Made by a program: the position numbers and the translations under genes. A DNA stretch of 64,000 nucleotides from Oscillospiraceae bacterium. Its GTDB lineage: Bacteria > Bacillota > Clostridia > Oscillospirales > Oscillospiraceae. The notes under the pieces are model-generated. The model saw nothing but the letters and a program-made list of their open reading frames with translations. It ran no database searches and was not told the origin of the DNA. Shown piece by piece: positions 11,757-44,225 of the stretch (position 1 is its first letter; each line of letters starts with the position of its first letter). The DNA is taken from NCBI GenBank assembly GCA_022846075.1, contig AP025582.1, positions 1,922,001 to 1,986,000 on the forward strand. The letters run 5' to 3'.

Positions 11757-11778
11757 GCGGTTAGCTATAGCTAACCGC
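11757..11778. promoter_or_regulatory. DtxR-type box 1 (siderophore importer)
   Basis: Perfect 22-bp palindrome with core GTTAGC-TATA-GCTAAC at 11760-11775, extended by GCG/CGC on each side. It lies directly upstream of the Shine-Dalgarno of permease 1. A TATAAT at 11846-11851 (minus strand) with TTGCAC 18 bases further up would place the box in the early transcribed region. Confidence 0.85.
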
Positions 11779-11917
11779 TGTGTATAAAAGAATGCGCAGC
11801 GGCGATTGGACTTACCGTGCATCACACACTGCGCATCGTAAGTGTATTATAGCATATGGAGTTAGTCATGTGCAACCGCGCAAAAAGCACAAGCTACCAA
11901 GCGGAAAGAAATCTTTT

Positions 11918-14032
11918 TTATCCATTCTGCAAATTGTTGCCCCGAGTGGACTGCGTCTGAGTAGTCAGCCGGCTCATGCTCCGCAGGCTGACGCCCAGGG
12001 TGGAGAGATTGTGCAGCGTGGCAGAGGTGGCGGGCGGTAGAACACCGGCCACACCAAGGGCAATCAGGGTGCCGTTGAAGCCGATAACGAAGCGGTAGTT
12101 GGAGTGGATGCGCGCCATCAGCGCCATGGCGATCCGGCGCAGCTCTACCAGTTCCCAGAGACTGTCGGCAGCGATGGTGATGTCCGCGATCTCCCGGGCG
12201 ATGGCGGCGCCGTCGCTGATGGCGATGCCCGCGTCCGCCTCGGACAGGGCCGGCGAGTCGTTGATGCCGTCGCCTACCATCAGGACGGTATGCCCCTCCC
12301 GGCGGAGCCGTGCAACATACTCCGCCTTGTCCGCCGGAAGGACTCCGGCGCGGAAGTCATCCACTCCCACCTGGGCGGCGATGGCTGCGGCGGTGCGGTA
12401 ACTATCGCCGGTGAGCATGACGGTATTGGTGACTCCCAGAGCACGGAGGGTGGACAGGACTTCCTTCGCCTCCTCCCGCAGCGGGTCGGAGATGCAGATC
12501 ACAGCGGCCAGCTGCCCCCCTACTGCCAGATACAAGTGGGAATACTCCGGCGGCAGCGCGTCAAAGCGTTCCTGTTCGCCCTCTGGAATGACGCAGCCCT
12601 CATCCTCAAAGATAAAGTGCGCGCTGCCGATGAGGACTCGCTCCTCATCGACGGTGCTTGCGATGCCGTGAGCCACCAGATACTCCACCTTGGAGTGGTA
12701 CTCCTCGTGGCGCAGGCCTCGGCGTTTGGCCTCCTCCACCACGGCGTTGGCCATGGAATGGGGGAAGTGCTCCTCCAGACAGGCGGCCAGCCGCAGCATT
12801 TCGGCTTCCTCTTTGCCGCCGAAGGACACCACCTGAGCCACCCGGGGGCAGGCGTGGGTCAGGGTGCCGGTCTTGTCAAAGACGATGGTGTCGGCGGCAG
12901 CCACCGCCTCCAGGAATTTGCCGCCCTTGACGGTGATATGGGCCCGTCCCGCCTCCCGCATGGCAGAGAGGACGGCCAGAGGCATAGCCAGTTTTAGGGC
13001 GCAGGAGAAGTCCACCATCAGCACCGACAGAGCCCGTGTCACATTCCGGGTAAGGGCAAAACTCAGCAGGCTCCCGGCAAAGGTATAGGGTACCAGCTTG
13101 TCCGCCAGATTGGCAGCCTTGCTCTCAGCCTCCGACTTCATCTGCTCCGACTGCTCGATCATGTGAACGATTTGGTCATAGCGGCTCTGACCGGAGGCCT
13201 GCTTTACCTCCAGCACACACTCGCCCTCCTCCACCACGGTGCCGGCATAGACTGCGCCTCCGGGGCGCTTGGGTACCGGGATGGATTCGCCGGTAAGGGA
13301 CGCCTGATTGACAGTGACCTCCCCCTCCAGCACCAGGCCGTCCACGGGCACGATGCCGCCGGCGCGGACGACTACGGCATCCCCCGGCTGGATCTGGGAC
13401 ACAGGGACCAGCACTTCGCCTTGGGCTGTGCGCAGCCAGACCCGGTCCACATTCAGCGACATGCACCGGGCCAGATCCGCCACAGATTTCTTCCTTGTCC
13501 ACTCCTCCAGCAGCTCGCCCGCCTCCAGCAGAAACATGACCATTCCGGCGGTTCCGAAGTCCCTTCTGCAGGCGGAAATGGAAATGGACAGGGCGTCCAG
13601 CAGCTCTACCTTGACGCGGCGGCGCAGCAGGCAGCGCAGTCCTCTCCGCACAAAGGGGATCATGTGCCAGAGAATGCGGGCAATCCGCAATGGGGACGGG
13701 AGAAACAGGGTGCAGGCGGCCTTGCACACCACCTTTGCCCCCAGCTTCTCCTCAAATTCCCGGTTCAGCGCCCGGCTGCTGTGGGCGGGCAGCGCGGTGG
13801 TCCGCTCCGCCTCCTGCCAGGAAAAATGCCGAATTTCGTTCAGCACGGCTTGGCGAGTCCCATCGTAGTACAGGATGACGCAGCAGGTTCGCTCATGGAC
13901 GGCGACCTGCCGGCACCATGATTTTCCCTGAATCCATGCCTCCAGCAGATCCGCCTGAGCGAGTGTCATTTGTTTTTGCCGCAGCCGGAACCGGATGCGC
14001 CCCCGGCTTTCGTGCAATATGGTTGCGTTCAT
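11918..14032 (-). CDS. P1B-type metal ATPase, FezB-like
   Basis: A 704-residue heavy-metal P-type ATPase. Visible in order: an N-terminal arginine-rich segment (Arg10, 12, 14, 16, 18 in SRGRIRFRLRQ) in place of a CxxC metal-binding domain; the actuator TGES at about 247-250; a membrane motif FSCALKLAMP at about 342-351 in place of the usual CPC/CPH/SPC; the phosphorylation site DKTGTLT at about 386-392; and GDGINDSPAL. The Ser-Cys-Ala membrane motif and arginine-rich N-terminus are features I associate with the P1B-6 group, which includes FezB, the ATPase of iron-storing ferrosomes. I chose the ATG at 14032 (AAGGAGG 5 bases upstream) over GTG 14047. Directly downstream of a FezA-like gene. 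Substrate Fe2+ is inferred. Confidence 0.9.
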   Translation of the reverse strand: MNATILHESRGRIRFRLRQKQMTLAQADLLEAWIQGKSWCRQVAVHERTCCVILYYDGTRQAVLNEIRHFSWQEAERTTALPAHSSRALNREFEEKLGAKVVCKAACTLFLPSPLRIARILWHMIPFVRRGLRCLLRRRVKVELLDALSISISACRRDFGTAGMVMFLLEAGELLEEWTRKKSVADLARCMSLNVDRVWLRTAQGEVLVPVSQIQPGDAVVVRAGGIVPVDGLVLEGEVTVNQASLTGESIPVPKRPGGAVYAGTVVEEGECVLEVKQASGQSRYDQIVHMIEQSEQMKSEAESKAANLADKLVPYTFAGSLLSFALTRNVTRALSVLMVDFSCALKLAMPLAVLSAMREAGRAHITVKGGKFLEAVAAADTIVFDKTGTLTHACPRVAQVVSFGGKEEAEMLRLAACLEEHFPHSMANAVVEEAKRRGLRHEEYHSKVEYLVAHGIASTVDEERVLIGSAHFIFEDEGCVIPEGEQERFDALPPEYSHLYLAVGGQLAAVICISDPLREEAKEVLSTLRALGVTNTVMLTGDSYRTAAAIAAQVGVDDFRAGVLPADKAEYVARLRREGHTVLMVGDGINDSPALSEADAGIAISDGAAIAREIADITIAADSLWELVELRRIAMALMARIHSNYRFVIGFNGTLIALGVAGVLPPATSATLHNLSTLGVSLRSMSRLTTQTQSTRGNNLQNG

Positions 14033-14084
14033 AGGTTCCTCCTTCACGAAAAGAGGGAGCCGCTGGCGGCTCCCTCTGGGTCAA

Positions 14085-14357
14085 TCAGGCTTCTTCGCTC
14101 TCCAGATTGGCAGCGGCGGCTTCCTCCGCTTCCTTCGCAGCCCGGTCCTCATTCAGCTCCTTGGCGGAGGCCAGAATGTCCGCGGCGTTTTCCTGCACCG
14201 TGGTCACAGTCCCCATGACCGAATCCTTCATCCGCAGGCCGGCGGCCGTGACATGGACATAGGCTTTCTTGGCGTCCTTGCTGGACAGCAGCTTGATGCC
14301 AAAAGAACCAAACAACGCACCACCCGCAAAGCAGGCAAGTTTCGTATAAACGCTCAT
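14085..14357 (-). CDS. DUF6110-like small membrane-associated protein (FezA-like)
   Basis: A 90-residue protein with one N-terminal hydrophobic stretch (about residues 6-24, rich in Gly and Phe), then the conserved-looking SSKDAKKAYVHVTAAGLRMKD region, and an Ala/Glu-rich acidic tail. This pattern is that of the small proteins coded directly before P1B-6-like ATPases in Clostridia (DUF6110) and, from memory, of FezA of the C. difficile ferrosome cluster. It precedes the ATPase by 52 bases on the same strand. Shine-Dalgarno AAGGAAGG. A role in the membrane of an iron-storing compartment is inference from the pairing. Confidence 0.75.
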   Translation of the reverse strand: MSVYTKLACFAGGALFGSFGIKLLSSKDAKKAYVHVTAAGLRMKDSVMGTVTTVQENAADILASAKELNEDRAAKEAEEAAAANLESEEA

Positions 14358-15557: not shown

Positions 15558-15980
15558 TCAGGCCAGTGACGCGCCCAGCTCGCGGCAGGCCGCCAGAGCG
15601 TCATCGTCCGGAGCCTCGTTGCAGATCACGCTTTCGCAGGCCAGATTGGCGCCGTCGTCGTTGCAGCGGGACTCCCAGCTGCGCATCCATTCGCCGTCGC
15701 CCCAGCCGTAGGAGCCAAACAGAGCGATGTTCTTCCCGCTCAGCCTGCCCTCACAGGCGGTGAACATGGGCTCGAACTCGCTCTCCTCCAGCTGCTCCGA
15801 CCCCATGGAGGGGCAGCCAAAGGCGATGGCGGAATACTCGCCGACCTGCTCCGGCGAGAACTCTGCGGCGGTAATCACAGACACCTCAGCGCCTTTGCCC
15901 TTGGCGCCTTCGGCCACCGCCATTGCCATGGCCTCGGTGTTTCCCGTGCCGCTCCAATACACAACTGCAACTTTACTCAT
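15558..15980 (-). CDS. Flavodoxin (short chain)
   Basis: A 140-residue flavodoxin with the FMN phosphate loop SGTGNTEAMA at residues 9-18 and the downstream GSYGWGDGEWM block that flanks the isoalloxazine ring. It replaces ferredoxin as low-potential electron carrier when iron is short. I chose the ATG at 15980; a TTG three codons upstream is possible. It follows the DUF3793 gene by 44 bases on the same strand and so lies behind DtxR-type box 2, which agrees with induction on iron limitation. Confidence 0.92.
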   Translation of the reverse strand: MSKVAVVYWSGTGNTEAMAMAVAEGAKGKGAEVSVITAAEFSPEQVGEYSAIAFGCPSMGSEQLEESEFEPMFTACEGRLSGKNIALFGSYGWGDGEWMRSWESRCNDDGANLACESVICNEAPDDDALAACRELGASLA

Positions 15981-16024
15981 AAGACTCAACGACCTTTCTT
16001 TCTGGATTTGTTATGGTAGAAACA

Positions 16025-16576
16025 TCAACCAGCCACGGTGAGCTGCTCGATGGATTTCCCTTGCTGCCACTGCCGAGAGTAGATTTTGCTGCACATCTCG
16101 TATTTTTCAAAGATGCTTCTGGCGGCCTGCTCGTCGCCGTAGACCTTCCAGCAGCCCACGCACTTGTGATTGCACGCCCGATTGCAGATAAAGCCCAGCA
16201 CATCCTCCGGCGGATAGCTCAAAAACAGTCCGATCTCATGGGGAAATTCCCCCTCGCTCCGGAGCCGGTGGATCAGGTGGACCACACAGCCATTGAGATT
16301 TTCCGGCACATAGCCGTATTTGAGAAGCAATGCTCTGGCGCGGTGATCGGTCAGATCGCTCTCCAGCGCATTGGGCCGGTAGGCGTAGATCAAAGCGCGG
16401 CCTTTGCGAACCCGGAGCGGCAGAACGCGGATGCCCTTGGGCACCAGTTTCTTGTTCAGCCGGCATAAGTCTCTCGTCAGATCCTTCCGGCTGGGGCAGG
16501 CGCAGGAAAAGAGGTTTCCCGTCTTGATCCCGGCCAGGGTGGGAGAACAGTGGCGAATCAGCAGATCCTCTGACAT
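16025..16576 (-). CDS. DUF3793-family protein
   Basis: A 183-residue cytosolic protein of the DUF3793 family, recognised by its conserved LLIRHCSPTLAGIKTGNLFS start, the HEIGLFLSYPPEDV centre and the Cys-rich CNHKCVGCWKVYGD motif. Members often sit with flavodoxin and iron uptake genes in Clostridia, and several cysteines could bind a metal or cofactor, but no activity is known to me. I chose the ATG at 16576 (GAGGG 8 bases upstream) over GTG 16591. First gene of the flavodoxin operon, directly behind box 2. Confidence 0.88.
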   Translation of the reverse strand: MSEDLLIRHCSPTLAGIKTGNLFSCACPSRKDLTRDLCRLNKKLVPKGIRVLPLRVRKGRALIYAYRPNALESDLTDHRARALLLKYGYVPENLNGCVVHLIHRLRSEGEFPHEIGLFLSYPPEDVLGFICNRACNHKCVGCWKVYGDEQAARSIFEKYEMCSKIYSRQWQQGKSIEQLTVAG

Positions 16577-16648
16577 AGGCGTTTCCCTCACAAAATCATG
16601 TCCATGCGAAGACTGTACGGCGAAATAAAAAAACTGACAGTAAATGTA

Positions 16649-16664
16649 GTTAGCGATTGCTAAC
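16649..16664. promoter_or_regulatory. DtxR-type box 2
   Basis: Exact GTTAGC-GATT-GCTAAC. On the minus strand TACATT directly follows the box and can serve as -10 for the DUF3793-flavodoxin operon, so a bound repressor would cover the promoter spacer. Confidence 0.85.
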
Positions 16665-16696: not shown

Positions 16697-16712
16697 GTTA
16701 GCGGTAGCTAAC
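16697..16712. promoter_or_regulatory. DtxR-type box 3
   Basis: Exact GTTAGC-GGTA-GCTAAC, 33 bases above box 2 between the divergent DUF3793 and dtxR genes. It may serve either direction; autoregulation of the repressor is the simplest reading. Confidence 0.85.
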
Positions 16713-16838: not shown

Positions 16839-17234
16839 ATGGCGATTCACGAGTCTGGCCAGATGTATCTGGAAACCATCTATATTCTTTCACAGAACAG
16901 CACCTTCGTTCGGGCTATCGATGTGGGAGCGCAGTTGGGCTTTACCAAGCCCAGCGTCAGCAGAGCCATGTCCATTCTGAAAAAGGACGGATATGTGAAT
17001 GTGGATGCTGACGGAGCAATTACCCTGACGGAGACCGGGCTTGCCATTGCTAAGACGATGTACACCCGCCACACGGTGTTGAGCCAGATGCTGATGGAAT
17101 TAGGCGTGGACGAAGAGACTGCGACCGAAGATGCCTGCCGGATCGAGCATGTGATCAGCGAAAAATCCTTTGCGGCGGTGCAGGCGCACTTGGAGCAGGT
17201 AACGAAAATGCGGGAAGATGCGCACGGGCAATGA
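16839..17234 (+). CDS. DtxR-family metal-dependent repressor
   Basis: A 131-residue repressor with an N-terminal winged helix-turn-helix (about 8-65; TKPSVSRAMSILKKDGYV is the recognition region) and a metal-binding dimerisation domain. The alignment with DtxR is easy to see: MYLETIY gives Met9 (DtxR Met10) and DACRIEHVIS gives Cys100, Glu103 and His104 (DtxR Cys102, Glu105, His106), a complete primary Fe(II)-type site; MntR has Asp and Glu at the first and second positions. The ancillary site keeps His78 but not the other ligands. No SH3-like domain. ATG chosen for TTGGAGG 5 bases upstream; an extended -10 (TGTTATAAT, 16800-16808) precedes it. Likely repressor of the GTTAGC-box regulon. Confidence 0.92.
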   Translation: MAIHESGQMYLETIYILSQNSTFVRAIDVGAQLGFTKPSVSRAMSILKKDGYVNVDADGAITLTETGLAIAKTMYTRHTVLSQMLMELGVDEETATEDACRIEHVISEKSFAAVQAHLEQVTKMREDAHGQ

Positions 17235-17864: not shown

Positions 17865-18551
17865 TCACTCCTTCTTGACTTTTGGATCATCGAGCTGCGC
17901 GGACCGGAAGGTGGTCTGCCGTGCCGCGCTCCGTTCATCGGGGATCTTCCTGGCCATCAGACAGCACAGCGGCGCCAACGAACTTCCGAGAAGTGGATGG
18001 CGAACGATGGAATAGCCGCGCTCGGACAGGTATGCCATCAGCTCCCCGGCAGTCCAGACATGATACACCCGAAAGCCTGAAAGCCCCATGAACCAGAGCC
18101 GGAGTCTGGCGCTTCGGCTTTTGCCCCAGACAAAGGTGGGGGCGAACAGCCATCCCCCCGGCTTCAGAACCCGCCAGGCTTCCGCCAGAGCTTTTTCCGG
18201 GTGAGGCATGACATGGAGGGCGTTGGAGATCACGACTGCATCGAAGCTCTCCGGGCCGTAGGGCAGCTTGGTAGCGTCCTGGACGGAGAAATGGAGCCGG
18301 GACGAATGCACCTGCTTTTTGGCCTGACGGATCATTTCAGCTGAAAAGTCGGTTGCCTCCCAGCTCCGGACACATGGAGACAGCGGCACGGACAGCTGGC
18401 CTGTTCCGCAGGCCAACTCCAGCACATCCATGTCCCGTTTCAGAAAAGGACGCATTGCTTTGCAGATCTGCTGATAGGTCGCCTGAGAGCGGCGCATGAA
18501 GCCGGCATAATGCCGTGAAAACCGCTCCCAAAACTGCTTGTTGTCATCCAT
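17865..18551 (-). CDS. Class I SAM-dependent methyltransferase (UbiE-like)
   Basis: A 228-residue Rossmann-fold methyltransferase. Motif I is VLELACGTGQLS (about 43-54), the acidic loop ATDFSAEMIRQAKKQ follows, then DAVVISNALHVMPHPEKAL and RVLKPGGWLFAPTF. The substrate is probably a small molecule. First gene of an operon with the HMA protein and the 47-residue peptide, directly behind DtxR-type box 4, so I infer induction on iron limitation. It is one of five methyltransferases in the island. Confidence 0.92.
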   Translation of the reverse strand: MDDNKQFWERFSRHYAGFMRRSQATYQQICKAMRPFLKRDMDVLELACGTGQLSVPLSPCVRSWEATDFSAEMIRQAKKQVHSSRLHFSVQDATKLPYGPESFDAVVISNALHVMPHPEKALAEAWRVLKPGGWLFAPTFVWGKSRSARLRLWFMGLSGFRVYHVWTAGELMAYLSERGYSIVRHPLLGSSLAPLCCLMARKIPDERSAARQTTFRSAQLDDPKVKKE

Positions 18552-18574: not shown

Positions 18575-18590
18575 GTTAGCGCTTGCTAAC
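18575..18590. promoter_or_regulatory. DtxR-type box 4
   Basis: Exact GTTAGC-GCTT-GCTAAC, 24 bases upstream of the methyltransferase ATG on the minus strand. Confidence 0.85.
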
Positions 18591-18735: not shown

Positions 18736-20475
18736 TTACCGGCACCAACTGGTGGGATTGGAGCGGGCGGTGATGAAGCGGCGATAAATGCCCTCCTCCT
18801 CCATAAGTGTGTCGTGGGCGCCAGCCTGAACGATGCGCCCCTGGTCGATAACCAGGATCTCATCGGCGTGACGAATGGTATTGAGCCGGTGGGCAATGAC
18901 CAGCAGGGTCTTGCCCCGGCACAGTTGGGTGATGGCCTCCTGGATGTAGCTCTCATTGTCGGCGTCCACGCTGGCAGTGGCCTCATCCAGAATGACGATG
19001 GGAGCATCCTTCAGAATGCAGCGAGCAATGGAGATCCGCTGCCGCTCTCCGCCGGATAGGCTGGCTCCACCTTCGCCGATGACCGTGTCAAAGCCGTCGG
19101 GCAGCTCCATGATGAAGTCATAGCATCGGGCTTTTCTGGCCGCCTCATAAACCTCCTCCCGTGTGGCGTCTGTCCGCCCCATGGCGATGTTGTTATAGAC
19201 GGTATCCTGGAATAAGTAGACCCGCTGGAACACCATAGAGATCTGATCCATCAGATCCGAGAGAGGAATATCGCGGATGTCACTGCCCCGCACCAGGATC
19301 TGTCCCTGTTTGACATCCCAAAACCGGGAGAGCAGGTTGGCTACCGTACTTTTACCGCCGCCGGAGGGGCCCACCAGGGCCAGCATCCGGTTTTTCTCCA
19401 GCGTGAAGGAGACATCATGCAGAACCTCTTTCTCCCCGTAGGCGAAGGTGACATTTCGGAACTCCACTTCCGGGGCACCGCCGGTTTTGGGTAAGGTCTC
19501 CCGGCCCCGGTCGGGCAATTCCGGCTGGGCCAGTACCGCCTCGATCCGGTCCATGCAGGCGTTCATCACCGTCAGGCGGGTGGCTTGACTATAGAGCGCT
19601 TTAATGGGGCCGAAGAGGTCAAAGACGAAGAGCAGGACACCCAGCAGGAAGGTGATGGAGAGCTGCCCCCGGCCATAGAGCCAGAGAGACAGGGGGATCA
19701 TCAGCACCGAGCCCAGACCGCACACCAGATAAAGGGCCCGCATCCAGGGGGCCTGACTCTCCTCGAACTCGATGCTGACCTTGCGGCTCCGGGCGAAATT
19801 CTCGGTGAGCTGCGCGGAACGCTCTCCCAGCAGGTTGAAGGTCTTGGCGATGCCGATGCCCTCCACATAGTCCAGCACCGCCCGTGTGAGCGCCTCGCTC
19901 TGCTCCTGTCGGATGTCGGAGTGGGCCAGGGTGCTCCCCAGGGATGCGCGGCCCAGCTGCCAGATAATCAGCACCACCACCAGGGCGGCCAGTCCCAGCC
20001 AGGGATTCAGGAAGGCCAGCCACAGCACCAGAATAGCCTGGGCAAAGGTATAGCACATCATGTCGGCAATATCGTGCATACAGTTCTCCTCGATGAACAC
20101 CATGTCGGTGGACAGAACGGAGCTGATTTTGCCGATGTTGCCCTCTGTGAAATAGCCCATGGGCAGGCGGCGCAGATGCCGCCCCAGTTCCATGCGCAGA
20201 TCGGCGAACACCATATATCCCGCCGCGGCCTGGAGCCGGTCGGCGATATTCTGGCACAGGCACTCCAGCAGCACGCAGCCCACCGTGCCCACCGCCAGCC
20301 ACAGGCACCACCGTGCCGTTATGGTTCCCTGGAGAAAGGCACTCAGGGACAGGAAAGACAAGCCTATCGGAGCCTTGGACAGCATGGCCTTCAAAAAAGC
20401 AAAGATGAAAGCCAGTTTGATCCGCCCCTGGTAGGGGCCGGATACGGACAGGATTCGTTTCATCAGCGTGATCAT
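18736..20475 (-). CDS. ABC half-transporter, YbtQ-like (pair 1, subunit B)
   Basis: A 579-residue TMD-NBD fusion. About six membrane helices (1-310) are followed by a nucleotide-binding domain with Walker A GPSGGGKST, signature LSGGERQRISIARC, Walker B ILDEATASVDADNE and H-loop AHRLNTI. It is of exporter fold but of the group that includes YbtQ and IrtB, which import ferric siderophores. Its ATG overlaps the stop of subunit A by 4 bases, so the two form a heterodimer. Import direction is inferred from iron-box control and neighbours, not visible in the sequence. Confidence 0.9.
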   Translation of the reverse strand: MITLMKRILSVSGPYQGRIKLAFIFAFLKAMLSKAPIGLSFLSLSAFLQGTITARWCLWLAVGTVGCVLLECLCQNIADRLQAAAGYMVFADLRMELGRHLRRLPMGYFTEGNIGKISSVLSTDMVFIEENCMHDIADMMCYTFAQAILVLWLAFLNPWLGLAALVVVLIIWQLGRASLGSTLAHSDIRQEQSEALTRAVLDYVEGIGIAKTFNLLGERSAQLTENFARSRKVSIEFEESQAPWMRALYLVCGLGSVLMIPLSLWLYGRGQLSITFLLGVLLFVFDLFGPIKALYSQATRLTVMNACMDRIEAVLAQPELPDRGRETLPKTGGAPEVEFRNVTFAYGEKEVLHDVSFTLEKNRMLALVGPSGGGKSTVANLLSRFWDVKQGQILVRGSDIRDIPLSDLMDQISMVFQRVYLFQDTVYNNIAMGRTDATREEVYEAARKARCYDFIMELPDGFDTVIGEGGASLSGGERQRISIARCILKDAPIVILDEATASVDADNESYIQEAITQLCRGKTLLVIAHRLNTIRHADEILVIDQGRIVQAGAHDTLMEEEGIYRRFITARSNPTSWCR

Positions 20476-22223
20476 GCTTCGTCGCCTCCTTTCTCCGCGG
20501 AGACACGCCAGGCAGCGGCTCCCTCAGCAGCCCGCCACAATTTTTCATAGGCGGAACAGGTCTTTCGCAATGTATCGTGGCGGCCGATCCCTGCCACCTT
20601 TCCTTGATCCAGCACCACAATCTGATCGGCGCCTGCAATGGACTGAAGCCGGTGGGCGATGACGATGACCGTCTTGCCCCGGATCACCTCGGCAATGGCG
20701 GCGTTCATTTTCTCCTCATTCTCCGGATCCAAAAAAGCGGTGGCCTCATCCAGCACCACGATGGGAGCGTTCTTCAAAATCGCCCGGGCCAGGGCGATCC
20801 GCTGCCGCTCCCCGCCGGAAAGCCCTTTGCCGCCATCGCCGGCCATGGTATAGATTCCTTTTTCCAGCCGTTTCAGAAACTCTCCGCATTGAGCCCGTTC
20901 CGCCGCCGCCAGCACCTCCTCGTCGGTGGCGCCGGGTCTTCCCAGCCGGATGTTCTCCAACAGGCTGGTGTTGAACAGGAACTGCTCCTGCGCGACGAAG
21001 GAGATCTGCTCATTCAGAGAGGCGAGGGACATCTCTCGCAGGTCTTGCCCCCCCAGCGTGATGCGTCCGTCCGTCACATCGTAAAAGTGGACCAGCAGCT
21101 TGGCAAGGGTCGACTTCCCGCTGCCGGATTCTCCCACCAAAGCAGTGAGGCTCCCCTGTGGGACAGAGAAGGAGATGCCGTGGAGGACTTCGTCCTTTTC
21201 ATAAGAAAACCGCACATTCTCAAAGCGGATCTGCAAATCGTTTCCGTTGAAATCCGTTTTTCCTTCTTTCAGGGGCGGAATATTGAACAGAGATTCCATT
21301 TGGTCGATCTTGTAGCTCAGCTGGGGCAGCACCGACATAAAGTTCATGGCTCGGATCAGAGGCGGTCCCACGGAAAAAGACATGCACAATACCAGCGCGT
21401 AATCCGGCAAGGTGGAGGCGCCGGTGAGTACCAGATAGCCGCCGGCTGGCAGCAGCACCAGCGCCACGCAGGGCAAAATGCTGGTGTAGAGGGCCATCCA
21501 CAGCCAGCAGGCCCGGAACCAATCCAGAGTAAAATCACGGTAGTTTTTTACATCGGTCTCAAAGCGGTGATAGGACTCTCCGTCCCGGTTGAAGACTTTC
21601 ACGACTTCCATGCCGTTGATGTACTCCACGATGGTGTTGTTCATTTTCTGCCCGGCGGCGTAGTAGTCTCCCATCTTGCTCATGCCGGAGCGGTACATCA
21701 TGCCCATGGCCAGCACGCCCAGCGGAAGGGAGCAGAGGGAAAGCAGACCCAGCTTCCAGTCCGTGAGGAACATGGCCGCAAATACCACCACCGGCACCGC
21801 CAGATTGGACAGCCCTTCCGGCAGGGCGTGGGCCAGCAGAAGTTCCATGCTCTCAATGTCGTCAATGAACATCTTCTTCCAGACTCCAACGCCCTTCTCC
21901 TGGATCGCGCCCAGGGGCTGCTTTTCCAGCTTGCTCTGGAGATGGAGCCGGAGGTTTTCCAAAGTATGATAGGCGGAACGGTGGGACAGAGCCAGCCCCT
22001 CCACATAGAGAAGGCCGTAGAGGACCATGCACAGAGCCATGGCCCCGGCGTTGAACAGGGTTTCCTCCAATGTGAGACTGCCCCCAGTCAGCAGGGGTCT
22101 CAGCAGGCGGTAGAGGAAGAAATAGGGCAGCACGCTCATGGCCACGCCGGCCACCAGTACCAGAATGGAGGCATAAGTCGTCTTCCGGTGGCGTCCAGTG
22201 TAGCGCAGGACTTTTTGAAACAC
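20472..22223 (-). CDS. ABC half-transporter, YbtP-like (pair 1, subunit A)
   Basis: A 583-residue TMD-NBD fusion: membrane domain about 1-330, NBD with Walker A GESGSGKST, signature LSGGERQRIALARA, Walker B VLDEATAFLDPENE and H-loop AHRLQSI. Starts at a GTG with AAGGAG 8 bases upstream, directly behind DtxR-type box 5. The Walker B neighbourhood (ATAFLDPENE) is that of the A-type subunit in all three pairs of the island, against ATASVD/ATANVD in the partner. Pairs with the next gene. Confidence 0.9.
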   Translation of the reverse strand: MFQKVLRYTGRHRKTTYASILVLVAGVAMSVLPYFFLYRLLRPLLTGGSLTLEETLFNAGAMALCMVLYGLLYVEGLALSHRSAYHTLENLRLHLQSKLEKQPLGAIQEKGVGVWKKMFIDDIESMELLLAHALPEGLSNLAVPVVVFAAMFLTDWKLGLLSLCSLPLGVLAMGMMYRSGMSKMGDYYAAGQKMNNTIVEYINGMEVVKVFNRDGESYHRFETDVKNYRDFTLDWFRACWLWMALYTSILPCVALVLLPAGGYLVLTGASTLPDYALVLCMSFSVGPPLIRAMNFMSVLPQLSYKIDQMESLFNIPPLKEGKTDFNGNDLQIRFENVRFSYEKDEVLHGISFSVPQGSLTALVGESGSGKSTLAKLLVHFYDVTDGRITLGGQDLREMSLASLNEQISFVAQEQFLFNTSLLENIRLGRPGATDEEVLAAAERAQCGEFLKRLEKGIYTMAGDGGKGLSGGERQRIALARAILKNAPIVVLDEATAFLDPENEEKMNAAIAEVIRGKTVIVIAHRLQSIAGADQIVVLDQGKVAGIGRHDTLRKTCSAYEKLWRAAEGAAAWRVSAEKGGDEA

Positions 22224-22240: not shown

Positions 22241-22256
22241 GTTAGTTATTGCTAAC
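22241..22256. promoter_or_regulatory. DtxR-type box 5
   Basis: GTTAGT-TATT-GCTAAC (one mismatch), immediately upstream of the Shine-Dalgarno of ABC pair 1. A further half site GTTAGC follows at 22259-22264. Confidence 0.75.
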
Positions 22257-23753: not shown

Positions 23754-23769
23754 GTTAGCAACAACTAAC
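23754..23769. promoter_or_regulatory. DtxR-type box 6
   Basis: GTTAGC-AACA-ACTAAC (one mismatch), directly upstream of AAAGGAGG of ABC pair 2. Confidence 0.75.
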
Positions 23770-29140: not shown

Positions 29141-29158
29141 GTGAGTGAAGGTGAAAAA

Positions 29159-29851: not shown

Positions 29852-29892
29852 ACGAATTGTACACAAATATTGAACAACAGGAGGAAAATCAA

Positions 29893-30708: not shown

Positions 30709-30732
30709 TTCGTCCAAATAGGAGGGTTGATC

Positions 30733-31654: not shown

Positions 31655-31670
31655 GTTAGCATAATCTAAC
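31655..31670. promoter_or_regulatory. DtxR-type box 8
   Basis: GTTAGC-ATAA-TCTAAC (one mismatch), followed at once by TATGTT, a possible -10 as at box 7. Upstream of ECF operon 1. Confidence 0.75.
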
Positions 31671-32294: not shown

Positions 32295-32295
32295 C

Positions 32296-32991: not shown

Positions 32992-34367
32992 AGCTGCAAG
33001 ATGTGTCCTTTTCCTATACAAAAGAAGTGGGCACCCTCACCCATATAGATCTGACCATCCGACCGGGCGAGTGTGTCTTGCTCTGCGGCGCTTCCGGCTG
33101 CGGAAAGACCACCATCACGAAGTTGGTCAACGGCCTGATCCCGGCATTTACGGAGGACTGCACGCTGACCGGACAGGTCCTGCTCCACGGCGCGCCGGTG
33201 CGGGAACAACCTCTTTACCAGCTGGCCCGGCAGGTGGGGTCTGTTTTCCAGAACCCCAAAAGTCAGTTTTTCAACATGGATTCCGACAGTGAGCTGGCCT
33301 TTGGCCTGGAAAATCAGGGTATGACCCGGGGTGAGATCCTCCATCGGCTGGATGATACCACCGACCGCCTGCATCTGAAGCGGTTGAGGGGGCGGAACAT
33401 CTTCGCCATGTCGGGCGGAGAAAAGCAGCTGCTGGCCTTTGCCTCGGTCTATGCCATGGGGCCGGAACTCTACATTCTGGATGAACCTACGGCCAATTTG
33501 GATCGGGATACCATTGACAGACTCCATGATCAAATCGTATACCTGAAAAGTCGGGGACACACCATTCTCATTGCGGAGCATCGGTTGTACTTTCTGGCGG
33601 ATCTCATAGATCGGGCCGTCTATCTGCGGGACGGGGTCGTGGAGCAGATCTGGAGCGGAGCAGAATTCCGGCGGCTGGCTGAGACAGAACGGATCGCTCT
33701 GGGCCTTCGCACACTCACGCCTACTCAGGTGACTCTGCCGCCCTCCCGCGCTGCGGGAGAACAGGATGGACTGTCTGTGGAGGGACTGTGCTGCCGGTAC
33801 AAGCGGGAGCCGCCGATATTTCAAAACCTTTCCTTCTCCGCCCGCCCGGGAGAGGTGCTGGCCGTCACGGGTGACAATGGCGTGGGAAAAAGCACCCTTT
33901 CCCGCTGCTTGTGTGGCCTGATGCGGGAGAGTGCCGGAACGATCCGCCTCAACGGCCGCATCCTTGGTGCGAAGCAGCGGCAGCGGATTGCCTACTGCGT
34001 CATGCAGGATGTGAACCATCAGCTCTTTTCCGACAGCGTATGGGGAGAGTGCCGGCTGGCTATGGAAGGGCTCTCTGACCAGCGCATTCAGGAGGTGCTG
34101 GATCGGCTCAATTTGCTTGCGTTCCGGGAAAAGCACCCTATGGCCCTCTCCGGCGGTCAGAAGCAGCGTTTGGCGGTGGCTACCGCCATGCTGTCCCAAA
34201 AGCCGCTGCTGGTATTCGACGAGCCCACCAGTGGTCTGGACTATGCAAGAATGCAGGAAGTGGCCCGCTGCGCACGGGAACTGGCGGACGAGGGGCGGGT
34301 GGTTCTGGTGGTGACCCATGACCGCGAATTTCTCCAGTGCGCCTGTGATCGAGTCCTGGAACTTTGA
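32985..34367 (+). CDS. ECF transporter fused double ATPase (system 1)
   Basis: A 460-residue protein with two ABC domains in tandem, replacing separate EcfA1 and EcfA2. First domain: GASGCGKTT, MSGGEKQLLAFA, YILDEPTANLD, AEHRLYFL. Second: GDNGVGKST, LSGGQKQRLAVA, VFDEPTSGLD, VTHDREFL. Between them is a linker of about 30 residues. Provides the energy for the dedicated (group I-like) ECF transporter. Complete. Confidence 0.92.
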   Translation: MVELQDVSFSYTKEVGTLTHIDLTIRPGECVLLCGASGCGKTTITKLVNGLIPAFTEDCTLTGQVLLHGAPVREQPLYQLARQVGSVFQNPKSQFFNMDSDSELAFGLENQGMTRGEILHRLDDTTDRLHLKRLRGRNIFAMSGGEKQLLAFASVYAMGPELYILDEPTANLDRDTIDRLHDQIVYLKSRGHTILIAEHRLYFLADLIDRAVYLRDGVVEQIWSGAEFRRLAETERIALGLRTLTPTQVTLPPSRAAGEQDGLSVEGLCCRYKREPPIFQNLSFSARPGEVLAVTGDNGVGKSTLSRCLCGLMRESAGTIRLNGRILGAKQRQRIAYCVMQDVNHQLFSDSVWGECRLAMEGLSDQRIQEVLDRLNLLAFREKHPMALSGGQKQRLAVATAMLSQKPLLVFDEPTSGLDYARMQEVARCARELADEGRVVLVVTHDREFLQCACDRVLEL

Positions 34368-35450: not shown

Positions 35451-35465
35451 GAAAGGAGTGGTTTT

Positions 35466-37223: not shown

Positions 37224-37225
37224 CG

Positions 37226-40127: not shown

Positions 40128-40143
40128 GTTAGCCACATCTAAC
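40128..40143. promoter_or_regulatory. DtxR-type box 9
   Basis: GTTAGC-CACA-TCTAAC (one mismatch) in front of ECF operon 2. TTGAAA (40090-40095) and TAATTA (40113-40118), 17 bases apart, could be the promoter, with the box just downstream. Confidence 0.75.
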
Positions 40144-40200
40144 CAAAGGATAGCATACCTATCTCATAAAGTCAACGCATTGCAAAATAGGAGGATCAAC

Positions 40201-40812
40201 ATGAGCAATCAAATCAATCCCGCAAAAAAGAGTCTCACTATCAAGGATCTTGTGACAACCGGCATTTTCAGCGCAATTTTCTTTGTGTTTACCATGATCG
40301 GCGGTATTTTCTTTGCACCAAACCCGGTTTTGACATTCTATATGCCGATGGGTGCAGCATTGCTGTGCGGCCCTGTATATCTTCTGATGATCGCCAAGGT
40401 GCAGAAGCGGTGGAGCGTCACCATTCTTGGTATCATTATGGGGATCATCTGGTTCGTTACCGGAATGCACTGGGCTTTTTCTTTAGGCTATATCGGAATG
40501 GGAATTATCGCCGATCTGGTAGCTGGCGCGGGAGATTACCGCAATAAGGCGGTCAATCTGCTGTCCTATATGCTGATGTCGCTGGGCGGCGTTTACACCT
40601 ATGTGGTGTTTTTTATTGATCCGCAAGGCTGGGCCAGCACGATGCTGGAAAACGGCACGGAACAGTCCTATATTGACACAATGAGCGCGTCTGCGCCCTC
40701 CTGGCTGTTGGCTGTCATCATTATCGGAACGCTGGCGATTGCTGCGTTCAGTGGTTGGATCGGTGGAAAGCTGCTGAAAAAGCAGTTTGAAAAGGCTGGG
40801 ATCACCGCATGA
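40201..40812 (+). CDS. ECF transporter S component, MptD-like (system 2)
   Basis: A 203-residue membrane protein related to the S component of system 1: LTIKDLVTTGIFSAIFFVFTMIGGIFF at the start and GGKLLKKQFEKAGI at the end. About five hydrophobic segments. The stop overlaps the T component start (ATGA). AGGAGG precedes the ATG 40201 by 8 bases. Substrate unknown; differences in the loops from system 1 suggest a different ligand. Confidence 0.9.
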   Translation: MSNQINPAKKSLTIKDLVTTGIFSAIFFVFTMIGGIFFAPNPVLTFYMPMGAALLCGPVYLLMIAKVQKRWSVTILGIIMGIIWFVTGMHWAFSLGYIGMGIIADLVAGAGDYRNKAVNLLSYMLMSLGGVYTYVVFFIDPQGWASTMLENGTEQSYIDTMSASAPSWLLAVIIIGTLAIAAFSGWIGGKLLKKQFEKAGITA

Positions 40813-41534
40813 TTGGCGGAGCGTTATCCACGCGCGGACTGTGGCTGGACCCCAGAACGAAGATATTACTGCTTCTGTTGTGTATCTTTTCTGCCATGAT
40901 GGCTCCATCCTTACTCTACGAACTGGGCCTTGTGGTGCTGATCGGGCTGCTCGGCATTTGCTTCGGAAAGTGGAAGTATGCCTGGAAGGGAGTACTGTTC
41001 TATGCGCTGATCGTTCTGCTCACCATCTGGATCATGGATACCATGACCGGAACTTGGCGCACCATGTTTATCGCTTTTTTAGGGTTATTCCATAAGGTCT
41101 ATCCCTGCGGGATGCTGTCTGGCATTGTCATTTCCACTACAAAGGTCAGCGAATTCCTCTCGGCGATGAATCGCATCCATGCACCCCAAAAGCTGGTAAT
41201 CCCCTTGGCCGTCATGCTGCGTTATATCCCTACCATTCAGGAGGATTGGCGGTTTATCAAGGACGCAATGCGGATGCGGGACGTCTCGCCTTCGCTTAAG
41301 GGGTTCCTGACGCATCCCGGAATAACGGTGGAGTGTATCTATGTTCCGTTGATGATGGCAGCATCCAAAGCGGCGGATGAACTGTCCATCGCTTCTATCA
41401 CCCGCGGCATTGAAAACCCAAAGCCTCGAACTTGTCTGGTGCAGATCCATATCGGGTTGATGGATATTGCGGCAGTCTTTTGCTTTGCAGGCGCACTGGC
41501 TGTCGGGCTTTATGGAAAGGGGATGCTGGGATGA
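40809..41534 (+). CDS. ECF transporter T component, CbiQ/EcfT-like (system 2)
   Basis: A 241-residue membrane subunit starting with the typical LDPRTKILLLLL; coupling helices VMLRYIPTIQEDWRFIKDAMRMRD and IASITRGIENP. Coupled on both sides by 4-base overlaps to the S component and the ATPase genes. Confidence 0.92.
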   Translation: MIGGALSTRGLWLDPRTKILLLLLCIFSAMMAPSLLYELGLVVLIGLLGICFGKWKYAWKGVLFYALIVLLTIWIMDTMTGTWRTMFIAFLGLFHKVYPCGMLSGIVISTTKVSEFLSAMNRIHAPQKLVIPLAVMLRYIPTIQEDWRFIKDAMRMRDVSPSLKGFLTHPGITVECIYVPLMMAASKAADELSIASITRGIENPKPRTCLVQIHIGLMDIAAVFCFAGALAVGLYGKGMLG

Positions 41535-43051
41535 TCGAGTTAAAGCATGTATCATTTACTTATCAAGGACAAACAGGAGACGGGCTGCATGACATCAACC
41601 TGACCATAGAGGACGGAGAATGTGTTCTGTTCTGTGGCCGGAGCGGCTGCGGAAAGACCACCATCACGAGGCTTGTAAACGGCTTGATCCCACAATTTTA
41701 CGCAGGAGAGCTGGCGGGCAGCGTACTGGTGGATGGTCAGGAAGTCCGTGATTTTCCTATGCACCAGATTGCCGCAAAGGTTGGATCGGTGTTTCAAAAC
41801 CCAAGGACACAGTTTTTTAATGTGGATACAGACAGCGAGATCGCTTTTGGTATTGAAAATCAAGCACTTCCAGTTTGCCAGCTGAGAGAACGCGTGGATC
41901 GGACATCGGCAGAACTTCACATTGAAAATCTCCGTAATCGCAACATCTTCGAGTTATCCGGTGGAGAAAAGCAAAAGATAGCGTTTGCCTCAGTCTATGC
42001 AATGAATCCTCAAATATATCTTTTGGATGAACCGTCCTCTAATTTGGATATGCGTTCCATTCAAGAATTGGGAGAACATCTCAGGCTGATCAAATCACAG
42101 GGAAAAACCATATTGATTGCAGAACATAGGTTATACTATTTGATGGATCTGGTGGACCGGATTGTGTATTTGGAACACGGGAAAATCATGCAGGTCTTTA
42201 CGCCGGAAGCATTTCGACAGCTGTCGGAGGATACCCGGGAACAAATGGGCCTTCGAGCGATCGATTTGCATCGTGTTCTCCCACCGCGGAATCATTCCCT
42301 TGCGCCTGTTTCAGATCCTATCTTGGAACTTAACAATGTAGCCCTTCACTATAAGAAGAGGATCATTTTGCACGACATCAGCCTTACAGCAGCAAAGGGA
42401 GAGGTAATTGGCGTCGTTGGCCACAATGGGGCCGGAAAAACGACCTTTTCCCGTGCTTTGTGCGGGCTTCACAAGGCCTGTGATGGTCAATTCTTTTGGA
42501 ACGGTCTGTCCATGGATCACAAAGATCGCCTGCGGCATTCCTATATGGTCATGCAGGATGTGAACTACGAGCTTTTTGCGGATAGTGTGGAGTCAGAATG
42601 TACATTCGGTATCCGCAATCCGAAACAGACGCTCGTTGACGCAACACTGGAAGAGTTGGCCCTGGCCCCATTCAGAGACCGCCACCCCAATACCCTGTCC
42701 GGAGGTCAAAAGCAGCGGGTGGCGGTAGCGGTCAGCATGATTTGTGGGAAAGACCTGCTGGTGTTTGACGAGCCGACCAGCGGGCTGGATTTTGATAGCA
42801 TGACACAGGTTGCGGGTCTGATCCGGCGGCTGTCTGATATGGGAAAAGTCATCTTTATTGTCACACATGATTTTGAATTTGTCAGTCGTACCTGTTCCCG
42901 CATCCTCCACTTTGATGAAGGAGAAATGCCCGACGATGTGCCTGTTACCATGGACGCTCTCCCTACATTGAGAGAATTGTTCTCCATTTCAGAAAGCAGG
43001 CCGGGACGGACAGAACACAGGAAAAGCCGATTCTGTGCTGCCGATTGCTGA
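41531..43051 (+). CDS. ECF transporter fused double ATPase (system 2)
   Basis: A 506-residue double ABC ATPase. First domain: GRSGCGKTT, LSGGEKQKIAFA, YLLDEPSSNLD, AEHRLYYL; second: GHNGAGKTT, LSGGQKQRVAVA, VFDEPTSGLD, VTHDFEFV. Compared with system 1 it has about 45 extra residues, mostly at the C-terminus after VTHDFEFV. Completes a dedicated S-T-A transporter behind box 9. Confidence 0.92.
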   Translation: MIELKHVSFTYQGQTGDGLHDINLTIEDGECVLFCGRSGCGKTTITRLVNGLIPQFYAGELAGSVLVDGQEVRDFPMHQIAAKVGSVFQNPRTQFFNVDTDSEIAFGIENQALPVCQLRERVDRTSAELHIENLRNRNIFELSGGEKQKIAFASVYAMNPQIYLLDEPSSNLDMRSIQELGEHLRLIKSQGKTILIAEHRLYYLMDLVDRIVYLEHGKIMQVFTPEAFRQLSEDTREQMGLRAIDLHRVLPPRNHSLAPVSDPILELNNVALHYKKRIILHDISLTAAKGEVIGVVGHNGAGKTTFSRALCGLHKACDGQFFWNGLSMDHKDRLRHSYMVMQDVNYELFADSVESECTFGIRNPKQTLVDATLEELALAPFRDRHPNTLSGGQKQRVAVAVSMICGKDLLVFDEPTSGLDFDSMTQVAGLIRRLSDMGKVIFIVTHDFEFVSRTCSRILHFDEGEMPDDVPVTMDALPTLRELFSISESRPGRTEHRKSRFCAADC

Positions 43052-43091: not shown

Positions 43092-43104
43092 CTCTTGGTT
43101 TCTA

Positions 43105-44109
43105 TTAAGGATCTTTCCTTTCCATGTCGGTTTTTTCCGTGAAGTAGTTGCAGTATGCTCTGCGGTATTCCGCAGGGGAGCGTCCGGTGTTTCGCCGGAA
43201 GATCTCCGCGAAACGGCTGGGATTCTGATACCCAACAATGGCCGCCACCTGGCTCACCGGCAGGTCGGTTTCCCGCAGCAGCCGCCCAGCCTGCTCCGTG
43301 CGCTGCCCCTGAATGTACTGGGTAATCGTGCAGCCATACCGGACATGGAAGGCATCCTTCAGCTTGGAAATACTCATGCAGCCAATACGGCTGAGACGTT
43401 CCAGCGGCAGTTCATCCGCACAGTGGGCCGTGATGAAGGCTGCCACATCGGCCAGCCGTACCATATCCTCCGCACTGACAGAACGGCGGTTCTTGCGCTT
43501 CAGGTGCCGCTCTGCCACCAGCGCCACCGCCTCCGCCACCTTCCCATCATAAAACAAACGGGCGGGAAGCCCCTCCCCCCGGTAGTCGCGCACCTGTTTC
43601 AAGAGCTGCACCATTTCCGGGAAGTGTTCTGTCTGATCCAGCGTTTGAAAAGACTCCAGCAGGCTTTGATACTCCTGGGGAAACTGGCGGCGCAGATAAT
43701 CCCGGTAGTAAGCCGGGGTGATCTCCACGCCAATGGAAACGATGGGGATCTGCCTGTGGATGAGCGCCCGGTATGGTTCCCGACCTCCGATAAAACTTTT
43801 GACACAGCCTGGAACAAGACGGCGGCAGGGGGAGAACTCCTCACCGGAAATGGATTCATACCAGGTGACACTGAGACTCTCCGGCCAATGGAACTCCAGC
43901 AGCTGATCCTCATGGAAAAAGAAATCATGGATCTTGATGGTATAGAGATCCTGCTGCCCGTAGGTCCAGAAAAAACCGCCGCCCTGCTGGGAGGTGTGCC
44001 GCCAGCACAGCCCCATGGAGCCGTAACGCCGGTTCTCCGGATCTGGAAGAAACCCGTGTTCCTCCATCGCCCGGCCATATTGCTGCTCCAAGTCTTTATT
44101 TGCCGCCAT
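43105..44109 (-). CDS. AraC-family regulator 4
   Basis: A 334-residue AraC-type regulator, paralogue of AraC 3 along its whole length (YGSMGLCWRHTS, FFWTYGQQDLYTIKIHDFFF, SISGEEFSPCRRLVPGC, IEITPAYY-type block, double HTH with LERLSRIGCMSISKLKDAF). It is divergent from the truncated ABC gene behind box 10, just as AraC 3 is divergent from ECF operon 2, so it probably served the transporter that has been lost. Confidence 0.9.
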   Translation of the reverse strand: MAANKDLEQQYGRAMEEHGFLPDPENRRYGSMGLCWRHTSQQGGGFFWTYGQQDLYTIKIHDFFFHEDQLLEFHWPESLSVTWYESISGEEFSPCRRLVPGCVKSFIGGREPYRALIHRQIPIVSIGVEITPAYYRDYLRRQFPQEYQSLLESFQTLDQTEHFPEMVQLLKQVRDYRGEGLPARLFYDGKVAEAVALVAERHLKRKNRRSVSAEDMVRLADVAAFITAHCADELPLERLSRIGCMSISKLKDAFHVRYGCTITQYIQGQRTEQAGRLLRETDLPVSQVAAIVGYQNPSRFAEIFRRNTGRSPAEYRRAYCNYFTEKTDMERKDP

Positions 44110-44209
44110 AATCTGTCACCACCTCGATCAGCCACATCTCCACCCCAATCAGCCGGAACCGCGCCCAAAGCCTTGCGATACCGCTGTTTTGCCGGTAGGA
44201 TGGATGTTG

Positions 44210-44225
44210 GTTAGTATCTGCTAAC
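44210..44225. promoter_or_regulatory. DtxR-type box 10
   Basis: GTTAGT-ATCT-GCTAAC (one mismatch), followed at once by TAAAAT (44226-44231), which is placed as the -10 is at box 7. Upstream of the truncated ABC gene. Confidence 0.75.

What the first reader, a model, noticed from the sequence alone, without database searches (positions are those of the whole stretch)
11757..44225. Ten copies of one palindrome define an iron-type regulon across the island
GTTAGC-N4-GCTAAC lies at 11760, 16649, 16697, 18575 and 27391 (exact) and at 22241, 23754, 31655, 40128 and 44210 (one mismatch in twelve). Every copy is just upstream of an operon, and I did not see it in the element end or in the core chromosome. 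A DtxR-family gene sits behind two copies. The half-site resembles DtxR/IdeR boxes but the spacing is wider by several bases. That the repressor binds it is inference.
Basis: partly seen in the sequence, partly recalled or inferred. Interest (0 to 1): 0.9.

Follow-up and report, generated by a model that had tools for sequence, protein, structure and literature searches.

The report
Iron-repressor operator set, mobile and core
A 16-base palindrome repeated in front of the transport operons of a mobile iron-uptake island in a gut-type anaerobe is very probably the binding site of an iron-sensing repressor of the diphtheria-toxin-repressor family, and the same site stands before iron genes elsewhere in the chromosome and in many related bacteria.

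Summary
All ten sites are present; they are the only GTTAG-N6-CTAAC (and the only TTAG-N6-CTAA) in 64 kb. It is not island-only: the genome has 15 GTTAG-N6-CTAAC against 0 for the reversed control, the other five before feoA-feoA-feoB, before a second DUF3793-flavodoxin pair, and at one doubtful place. In 80 DtxR-gene loci, mostly from Clostridia, the six-base spacer is sharply selected (158 hits; at most 4 for any other spacer from 0 to 20). The box lies upstream of dtxR in 64 of 80, tied to the divergent feo/flavodoxin operon rather than to dtxR. -35/-10 elements sit at fixed offsets, as at repressor operators. The 'wider spacing' puzzle dissolves: the 19-bp IdeR/DtxR box is two overlapping TTAG-N6-CTAA sites, one per dimer, so this is a one-dimer box (inner C/G swapped). 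Closest known is EqbA, a DtxR-like repressor on a streptococcal iron ICE, whose palindrome contains GTTAG-N6-CTAAC. Best reading: a Fe(II)-dependent repressor regulon. The island brings its own 131-aa DtxR; the host's core paralogue has nearly the same recognition helix and probably reads the same boxes. Binding, metal and acting paralogue remain untested.

The parts
11760..11775 (.). box 1 (GTTAGC-TATA-GCTAAC), before the FecCD/FecCD/FecE/binding-protein operon on the minus strand
   Evidence: families; no promoter found and permease start unresolved
16649..16664 (.). box 2, between DUF3793-flavodoxin (minus) and dtxR (plus)
16697..16712 (.). box 3, starting 7 bp after the -10 of a perfect TTGACA-17-TATAAT promoter on the minus strand that leads into DUF3793-flavodoxin
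18575..18590 (.). box 4, 3 bp after TATGAT of a TTGCAA-17-TATGAT promoter (minus strand), before the methyltransferase
22241..22256 (.). box 5, directly upstream of the Shine-Dalgarno sequence of ABC pair 18736-22223 (minus strand), after a terminator-like hairpin
   Evidence: hairpin and Shine-Dalgarno read by eye
23754..23769 (.). box 6, directly upstream of the Shine-Dalgarno sequence of ABC pair 23786-27258 (plus strand), after a terminator-like hairpin
   Evidence: hairpin and Shine-Dalgarno read by eye
27391..27406 (.). box 7, lies within the 17-bp spacer of TTGACT-17-TATAAT, before the LCM-type methyltransferase operon
31655..31670 (.). box 8, before the ECF transporter operon 31695-34367
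40128..40143 (.). box 9, before the second ECF transporter operon 40180-43051
44210..44225 (.). box 10, between AraC (43105-44109 minus) and the truncated ABC transporter 44279-45502
16839..17234 (+). island dtxR (131 aa, two-domain, no SH3): candidate repressor
   Evidence: Pfam PF01325 and PF02742; PDB MntR/DtxR/IdeR matches; model pLDDT 91.9 matching MntR, DtxR and IdeR
16025..16591 (-). DUF3793 protein, first gene of the likely operon with flavodoxin
15558..15989 (-). flavodoxin
7900..11825 (-). siderophore-type ABC importer: binding protein 7900-8925, ATPase 8966-9724, permeases 9721-10893 and 10695-11825 (longest ORF)
17865..18551 (-). methyltransferase behind box 4
18736..22223 (-). ABC half-transporter pair behind box 5
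23786..27258 (+). ABC half-transporter pair behind box 6; for its first member YbtPQ and IrtA are among the closest stand-alone half-transporters in PDB
27448..31557 (+). LCM-type and other methyltransferases behind box 7
31695..34367 (+). ECF-type transporter (Trep_Strep, CbiQ, double ATPase) behind box 8
40180..43051 (+). second ECF-type transporter behind box 9
44279..45502 (+). ABC transporter with membrane domain only (truncated) behind box 10

Best explanation
GTTAG-N6-CTAAC (consensus RGTTAGC-N4-GCTAACY) is the operator of a two-domain, iron-sensing DtxR-family repressor. With enough Fe(II) one repressor dimer sits on each box, which overlaps the transcription start, the -35/-10 spacer or the leader next to the Shine-Dalgarno sequence, and blocks transcription of iron uptake (siderophore-type ABC importer, YbtPQ/IrtAB-like pairs, ECF transporters, feoAAB) and of flavodoxin, the iron-free stand-in for ferredoxin. 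When iron falls the dimer leaves and the set is switched on. The island brings its own repressor (16839-17234). The host's core paralogue (G000:C1:2621467-2621829) has nearly the same recognition helix and probably reads the same boxes, so the island is wired into the resident iron regulon on arrival. Shown here: the sites, their spacing constraint, promoter geometry, gene content, co-occurrence with the DtxR subfamily, metal-ligand residues. Inferred: binding, Fe(II) as the metal, repression as the sign, substrates of the transporters, and which paralogue acts.
For: Chance excluded in the window and genome (15 against 0). Core sites precede feoA-feoA-feoB and a second DUF3793-flavodoxin pair. 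In 80 loci fetched with the DtxR proteins, GTTAG-Nk-CTAAC gives 158 for k=6 (154 distinct contexts) and at most 4 for each other k of 0-20; reversed control at k=6 is 1. TTAG-N6-CTAA within 400 bp upstream of dtxR in 64 of 80; present in 60 of 61 loci with a divergent feo/flavodoxin/DUF3793 gene within 1.2 kb and in 4 of 19 without. Starting from the box instead: of 29 loci, one from each of 29 relatives, 16 hold feoA/feoB, 2 more flavodoxin/DUF3793, 4 a ZIP transporter, 2 weak ABC hits, 5 nothing recognised. Around 220 boxes exact TTGACA peaks at -37/-36 and exact TATAAT at -14/-13, with a second pair at -7 and +16. Class sample of 243 genomes: 130 with a strong homologue have 542 sites against 237 control; 68 without any have 52 against 123. 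Ligands M9, E12, H78, C100, E103, H104 with DtxR-type Met and Cys. EqbA binds a promoter palindrome that contains GTTAG-N6-CTAAC in a Fe2+/Zn2+/Mn2+-responsive way. IdeR binds such a half site with one dimer.
Against: No binding or expression data. The bare TTAG-N6-CTAA is near background in this genome (19 against 15). Co-occurrence is not corrected for phylogeny; 11 of 130 genomes with a strong DtxR homologue have no box, five of them in one family, and 31 genomes with intermediate homologues show no enrichment (80 against 84). Some genomes have boxes but no PF02742 hit: G008, G052, G143, G270, though G270's five sites may be chance. Boxes 1, 5, 6, 8 have no clear sigma-70 promoter in my scan, boxes 2 and 10 only poor ones. 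The DtxR ancillary metal site is not kept. IdeR Q43A still bound its box, which weakens the idea that residue 43 sets the inner base.
Confidence: 0.85

Rival explanations
1. The core paralogue alone reads the boxes; the island DtxR is a passenger or senses a different metal.
For: Three genomes of the same genus with boxes at feoA (G003, G007, G014; 78, 93 and 89% complete) have a single match to the core DtxR protein, the core orthologue. The core type carries Asp where the island type has Met at the first ligand, so metal selectivity may differ.
Against: Island DtxR has nearly the same recognition-helix segment GF(T/S)KPSVSRAM, and its near-identical copies stand beside a boxed DUF3793-flavodoxin operon.
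Confidence: 0.2
2. The island DtxR autoregulates through the two boxes beside it (implied by the first reader).
For: Boxes lie about 140-190 bp upstream of its start; box upstream of dtxR in 64 of 80 loci.
Against: Box presence follows the divergent feo/flavodoxin/DUF3793 gene (60 of 61) and is rarer without it (4 of 19); nearest box is a median 47 bp from the divergent gene match and 125.5 bp from the dtxR match. The only perfect promoter at the boxes points to DUF3793.
Confidence: 0.15
3. The palindrome is a site for another island regulator (TetR- or AraC-type) and sits near iron genes by co-location.
For: TetR and AraC genes lie in the island, and TetR operators are often palindromes of similar size (recalled).
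Against: The same box precedes feo genes in many genomes and tracks DtxR homologues; EqbA, a DtxR-like protein, binds a palindrome with the same core.
Confidence: 0.04
4. The regulator senses Mn or Zn rather than Fe, as MntR-like proteins do.
For: Two-domain architecture and best matches are MntR-like; ZIP genes are among the box-linked genes; EqbA also responded to Zn and Mn.
Against: Cys at the MntR Glu99 position and Met at Asp8 (MntR numbering recalled); targets are feo, flavodoxin and siderophore-type importers.
Confidence: 0.12

Closest known systems
EqbA of Streptococcus equi ICESe2 (PMC3672683, passages read)
   Same: Two-domain DtxR-like repressor without SH3 domain, on a mobile iron-acquisition element; the 36-bp promoter palindrome needed for its binding contains GTTAG-N6-CTAAC (checked); conserved Cys ligand.
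   Different: One palindrome in one promoter, with longer arms; Asn in place of Met at the first ligand; controls siderophore synthesis, which I did not find among the island genes that I scanned. Here ten boxes over many operons plus core chromosomal targets.
IdeR/DtxR of Actinobacteria (PMC8464063, passages read)
   Same: Fe(II) repressor family; TTAG-N6-CTAA is the unit read by one dimer; the authors propose the 14-bp TTAGGNNNNCCTAA half-site consensus.
   Different: Canonical operator is 19 bp for two dimers; repeats are CCTAA, here GCTAA; residue 43 is Gln there and Arg here; SH3 domain and full ancillary metal site absent here.
MntR of Bacillus
   Same: Two-domain architecture; closest sequence and fold matches.
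   Different: Met and Cys instead of Asp8 and Glu99 (MntR numbering recalled; the Cys/Glu difference is also in PMC3672683); different operator (recalled).
C. difficile RT023 element 023_CTn1 with a DtxR/MntR-type gene and siderophore cluster (PMC6814731, passages read)
   Same: Mobile iron element with a DtxR-type gene in a gut anaerobe.
   Different: Carries a predicted siderophore cluster with a salicylate synthase; no operator was described in the passages seen.

Membership tests
DtxR/MntR superfamily | winged-helix DNA-binding domain plus metal-binding and dimerisation domain | tested here: met
   PF01325 41.1 bits (cut-off 26), PF02742 53.0 bits (cut-off 27); model and fold matches
DtxR/IdeR (iron type) | primary metal site with Met10, Cys102, Glu105, His106 (numbering recalled) | tested here: met
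   sequence alignment; Met kept in 23 of 24 aligned rows (rows chosen by me), Cys/Glu/His in 24 of 24
DtxR/IdeR (iron type) | ancillary metal site His79, Glu83, His98 (numbering recalled) | tested here: not met
   only the His79 equivalent kept; Ser and Thr at the others
DtxR/IdeR (iron type) | C-terminal SH3-like domain | tested here: not met
   protein ends at residue 131; PDB matches cover only the first two domains of DtxR
DtxR/IdeR (iron type) | 19-bp operator with four CCTAA repeats | tested here: not met
   profile of 292 boxes shows a single TTAGC-N4-GCTAA unit with unconserved bases where a second interleaved unit would lie
DtxR/IdeR (iron type) | one-dimer unit TTAG-N6-CTAA | tested here: met
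EqbA-like | operator core GTTAG-N6-CTAAC | tested here: met
   published palindrome contains it
EqbA-like | Fe2+/Zn2+/Mn2+-responsive DNA binding | not testable with these tools
   needs purified protein
MntR (manganese type) | Asp8 and Glu99 metal ligands (numbering recalled) | tested here: not met
   Met and Cys at these places in the island protein; the core paralogue has Asp and Cys
Fur | PF01475 domain | tested here: not met
   the island regulator matches no FUR model at E 0.001; the genome's only hit over the cut-off lies beside a rubrerythrin-like ORF (PerR and rubrerythrin are my reading, not a search)

The most novel reading that the evidence does not exclude
A large part of the Clostridia runs its iron response (feoAAB, flavodoxin, siderophore-type importers) not through Fur but through a two-domain DtxR that reads a one-dimer box, GTTAGC-N4-GCTAAC, often in arrays about three helical turns apart (30 or 34 bp). 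Arg43 facing GCTAA replaces Gln43 facing CCTAA. Mobile iron islands exploit this by carrying boxes that both their own and the resident repressor can read, so that they are under iron control at once in a new host.
Probability: 0.45. Interest if true: 0.65.

Novelty: new variant of a known kind. Interest (0 to 1): 0.52.

Why it matters
I found little in the papers that I could search on how gut Oscillospirales and Lachnospiraceae sense iron; the one paper on iron regulation in a clostridium in the listings concerns Fur in C. difficile (PMC6311696, start of abstract only). A defined box, a candidate repressor and a target list make the iron response of these commensals predictable from sequence. 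The match between island and host operators suggests how horizontally moved nutrient islands become regulated straight away. It also joins two isolated observations, the 'unusual' EqbA site and the IdeR half site, as one operator type.

Tried and rejected
Island-only regulon: rejected. 'Wider spaced' DtxR box: rejected by comparison with the 19-bp consensus. Autoregulation of dtxR: disfavoured. Element ends: direct repeats searched in 1-7500 and 44000-51000, each region on its own, gave nothing I could call an attachment site; repeats between the two regions were not searched. Plasmid and phage collections: DtxR relatives only below 60% identity (215 and 10 records), so the near-identical island copies were seen only in genome contigs. 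Literature: searches listed no paper that I recognised as describing this box as a Clostridia-wide DtxR operator; only open-licence PMC papers are held and I opened four (passages), so this is not proof of absence. In one search, with one mismatch allowed and both directions read, there are also peaks downstream of the box (TATAAT +23/+26, TTGACA +43 to +46) and TATAAT at -4; I take them as partly mirror images or built from box letters, and exact hexamers leave -37/-36 with -14/-13, and -7 with +16, as the main pairs. The 'all ten intergenic, 8.4%' figure used gene ends that I trimmed or chose by hand; I do not rely on it. Of 20 fetched regions my pattern could read DtxR in 13; one gave no reading.
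Full report
WHAT IS THERE. The pattern GTTAGC-N4-GCTAAC occurs ten times in the window with at most two mismatches, exactly at the ten stated places. In 100 dinucleotide shuffles the mean was 0.85 and the largest 4. All ten share the stricter core GTTAG-N6-CTAAC, and TTAG-N6-CTAA occurs nowhere else in the window. Genome-wide (3.23 Mb) GTTAG-N6-CTAAC occurs 15 times against 0 for the pattern read backwards. The bare TTAG-N6-CTAA is close to background (19 against 15), so the outer G/C pair is part of the signal.

CORE SITES. Outside the window the sites lie (a) three upstream of and one inside a feoA-feoA-feoB operon (L006; two are exact GTTAG-N6-CTAAC, two carry one or two mismatches to the twelve-base pattern), next to a ZIP transporter gene, (b) two before a second DUF3793-flavodoxin pair (L005), (c) one between LysR and FMN-reductase genes (L007), inner bases asymmetric and no promoter found, doubtful, and (d) a one-mismatch site near NuoE/hydrogenase-type genes (L005), doubtful. 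The two feoA genes were recognised by eye from the translation; feoB, ZIP, DUF3793 and flavodoxin by Pfam. The island also has a DUF3793-flavodoxin pair behind two boxes. The regulon therefore spans core and island.

ISLAND GENES. Behind the ten boxes are: a siderophore-type binding-protein importer (7900-11825), DUF3793-flavodoxin, a methyltransferase, two ABC half-transporter pairs, a methyltransferase operon, two ECF-type transporters and a truncated ABC transporter. A third half-transporter pair (35427-38971) has no box directly before it and follows the first ECF operon and an AraC gene. For the two half-transporters that I searched (23786-25531 and 37151-38971), YbtPQ and IrtA are among the closest stand-alone half-transporters in PDB, after full-length P-glycoprotein-type proteins. 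Three serine recombinase family genes stand at the left and ArdA-like genes at the right. A DtxR 97-100% identical over the matched length to the island protein occurs in 12 of the 80 loci fetched, under the names Flavonifractor, Pseudoflavonifractor, Gemmiger, Anaeromassilibacillus, Anaerofilum, Intestinimonas, Fournierella, [Clostridium] asparagiforme and Oscillibacter: recent spread between genera.

SPACER AND PARTNER. In these 596 kb GTTAG-Nk-CTAAC gave 158 hits for k=6 and 0-4 for every other k from 0 to 20; the reversed control gave 1 at k=6. Merging identical contexts leaves 154; near-identical island copies remain in it. The shorter TTAG-Nk-CTAA gave 209 at k=6, 25 at k=10 and at most 6 elsewhere. 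TTAG-N6-CTAA lies within 400 bp upstream of dtxR in 64 of 80, often 2-4 times; over all loci read, spacings between neighbours peak at 30 and 34 bp. Presence depends on the neighbour: 60 of 61 loci with a divergent feoA/feoB/flavodoxin/DUF3793 gene within 1.2 kb have it, 4 of 19 without. The box belongs to the metal operon rather than to dtxR.

UNBIASED DIRECTION. Starting from the box rather than from DtxR, the exact 12-base pattern was found in 33 of 60 genomes, the window's own among them; control matches occurred in 4 genomes. The tool gave one locus for each of 29 of the other 32 genomes (L019-L047). Of these 29, 16 hold feoA or feoB, 2 more flavodoxin/DUF3793, 4 a ZIP gene, 2 weak ABC matches and 5 nothing I could recognise with my 27 reference proteins.

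CO-OCCURRENCE. In 243 genomes of the class, 130 with a strong homologue (E at most 1e-25) hold 542 sites against 237 control sites, 31 intermediate ones 80 against 84, 14 weak ones 7 against 26, and 68 without a match 52 against 123 (Mann-Whitney p = 9e-12 between strong and none, not corrected for phylogeny). Exceptions: 11 strong genomes without any site, five from one family; G143, G052, G008 and G270 have sites but no PF02742 hit.

PROMOTER GEOMETRY. Over 220 non-redundant boxes read in both directions, TTGACA peaks at -37/-36 and TATAAT at -14/-13 from the box start (one mismatch allowed). With exact hexamers the counts are 35 and 23 for TTGACA, 27 and 13 for TATAAT, and a second pair stands at -7 (10) and +16 (13), the layout in which the box fills the spacer. 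In the window, box 3 follows a perfect TTGACA-17-TATAAT, box 4 follows TTGCAA-17-TATGAT, and box 7 lies in the 17-bp spacer of TTGACT-17-TATAAT. These are repressor positions. Boxes 5, 6 and 8 sit between a terminator-like hairpin and the Shine-Dalgarno sequence (both read by eye) without a clear promoter; box 1 has none either, boxes 2 and 10 poor ones.

THE REGULATOR. 16839-17234 encodes 131 residues with both DtxR-family domains. The AlphaFold model (mean pLDDT 91.9) matches MntR, DtxR and IdeR, the first row being MntR D8M. Ligand positions are Met, Glu, His, Cys, Glu, His: the DtxR-type Met and Cys, but no ancillary site beyond the first His and no SH3 domain. A second core paralogue (L009, 48% identical) has Asp for Met and no box in its own fetched 3 kb. 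In 10 same-genus regions that my pattern could read, its orthologues carry Asp in 10 and a box upstream in 1; two G013 regions could not be read. The recognition segments GFTKPSVSRAM and GFSKPSVSRAM differ in one residue. Three same-genus genomes with boxed feo operons show only the core orthologue (G003, G007, G014), so the core protein probably reads the box too; these assemblies are 78-93% complete.

WHY THE SPACING IS NOT ODD. In IdeR the 19-bp TTAGGTTAGSCTAACCTAA carries four CCTAA repeats; one dimer takes repeats 1 and 3, the other 2 and 4, on opposite faces (PMC8464063, passages). Each dimer's unit is TTAG-N6-CTAA, two of them offset by five bases. The authors report one-dimer binding to a half site and propose TTAGGNNNNCCTAA. 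The present box is that unit with C and G exchanged at the inner position (77% over 292 boxes). In IdeR Gln43 touches that base; here the residue is Arg (numbering by alignment). That the swap is a matched change is my inference; the paper also found Gln43 dispensable for IdeR binding, which counts against a strong role.

CLOSEST PRECEDENT. EqbA, a DtxR-like repressor without SH3 domain on the streptococcal ICESe2, binds the eqbB promoter in a Fe2+-, Zn2+- and Mn2+-responsive way, and binding needs its 36-bp imperfect palindrome (PMC3672683, passages). That palindrome contains GTTAGATGTATCTAAC, which is GTTAG-N6-CTAAC. The authors called the site unlike other palindromic iron boxes. It is the same core as here.

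VERDICT. Observation confirmed; interpretation right in kind, wrong on island restriction and spacing, and probably on dtxR autoregulation. It is a DtxR-family iron regulon with a one-dimer operator, shared by a mobile island and the core genome. Binding, metal and paralogue need the bench.

Noticed in passing
window 889-4868: Three serine recombinase family genes in a row at the left side of the island; the middle one matches only the Recombinase domain.
   Followed up: no
window 44279-45502: ABC transporter ORF with the membrane domain but no ATPase domain, at the right end of the boxed region: a truncated transporter.
   Followed up: no
window 22241, 23754, 31655: Three boxes lie between a terminator-like hairpin and the Shine-Dalgarno sequence with no clear sigma-70 promoter between; a roadblock in the leader or an unusual promoter is possible.
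   Followed up: partly
G010 (same genus), C18:167377-266343: Eight DtxR-family matches in one genome, five of them within about 100 kb, one of these partial: perhaps several iron islands stacked together.
   Followed up: no
window 49839-49925: tRNA-Leu(CAA) gene next to ylxM-ffh, possibly near the attachment site of the element.
   Followed up: partly
class family f69 (G124, G190, G224, G241, G291): Strong DtxR homologues but no GTTAG-N6-CTAAC site at all; the operator may have changed in these genomes.
   Followed up: partly
G143: Eleven boxes (control 1) but no PF02742 match in a 99% complete genome.
   Followed up: partly
window 22294-23013 (-) and 22817-23710 (+): Two divergent TetR genes, each upstream of one of two ABC pairs in a mirror arrangement.
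   Followed up: no
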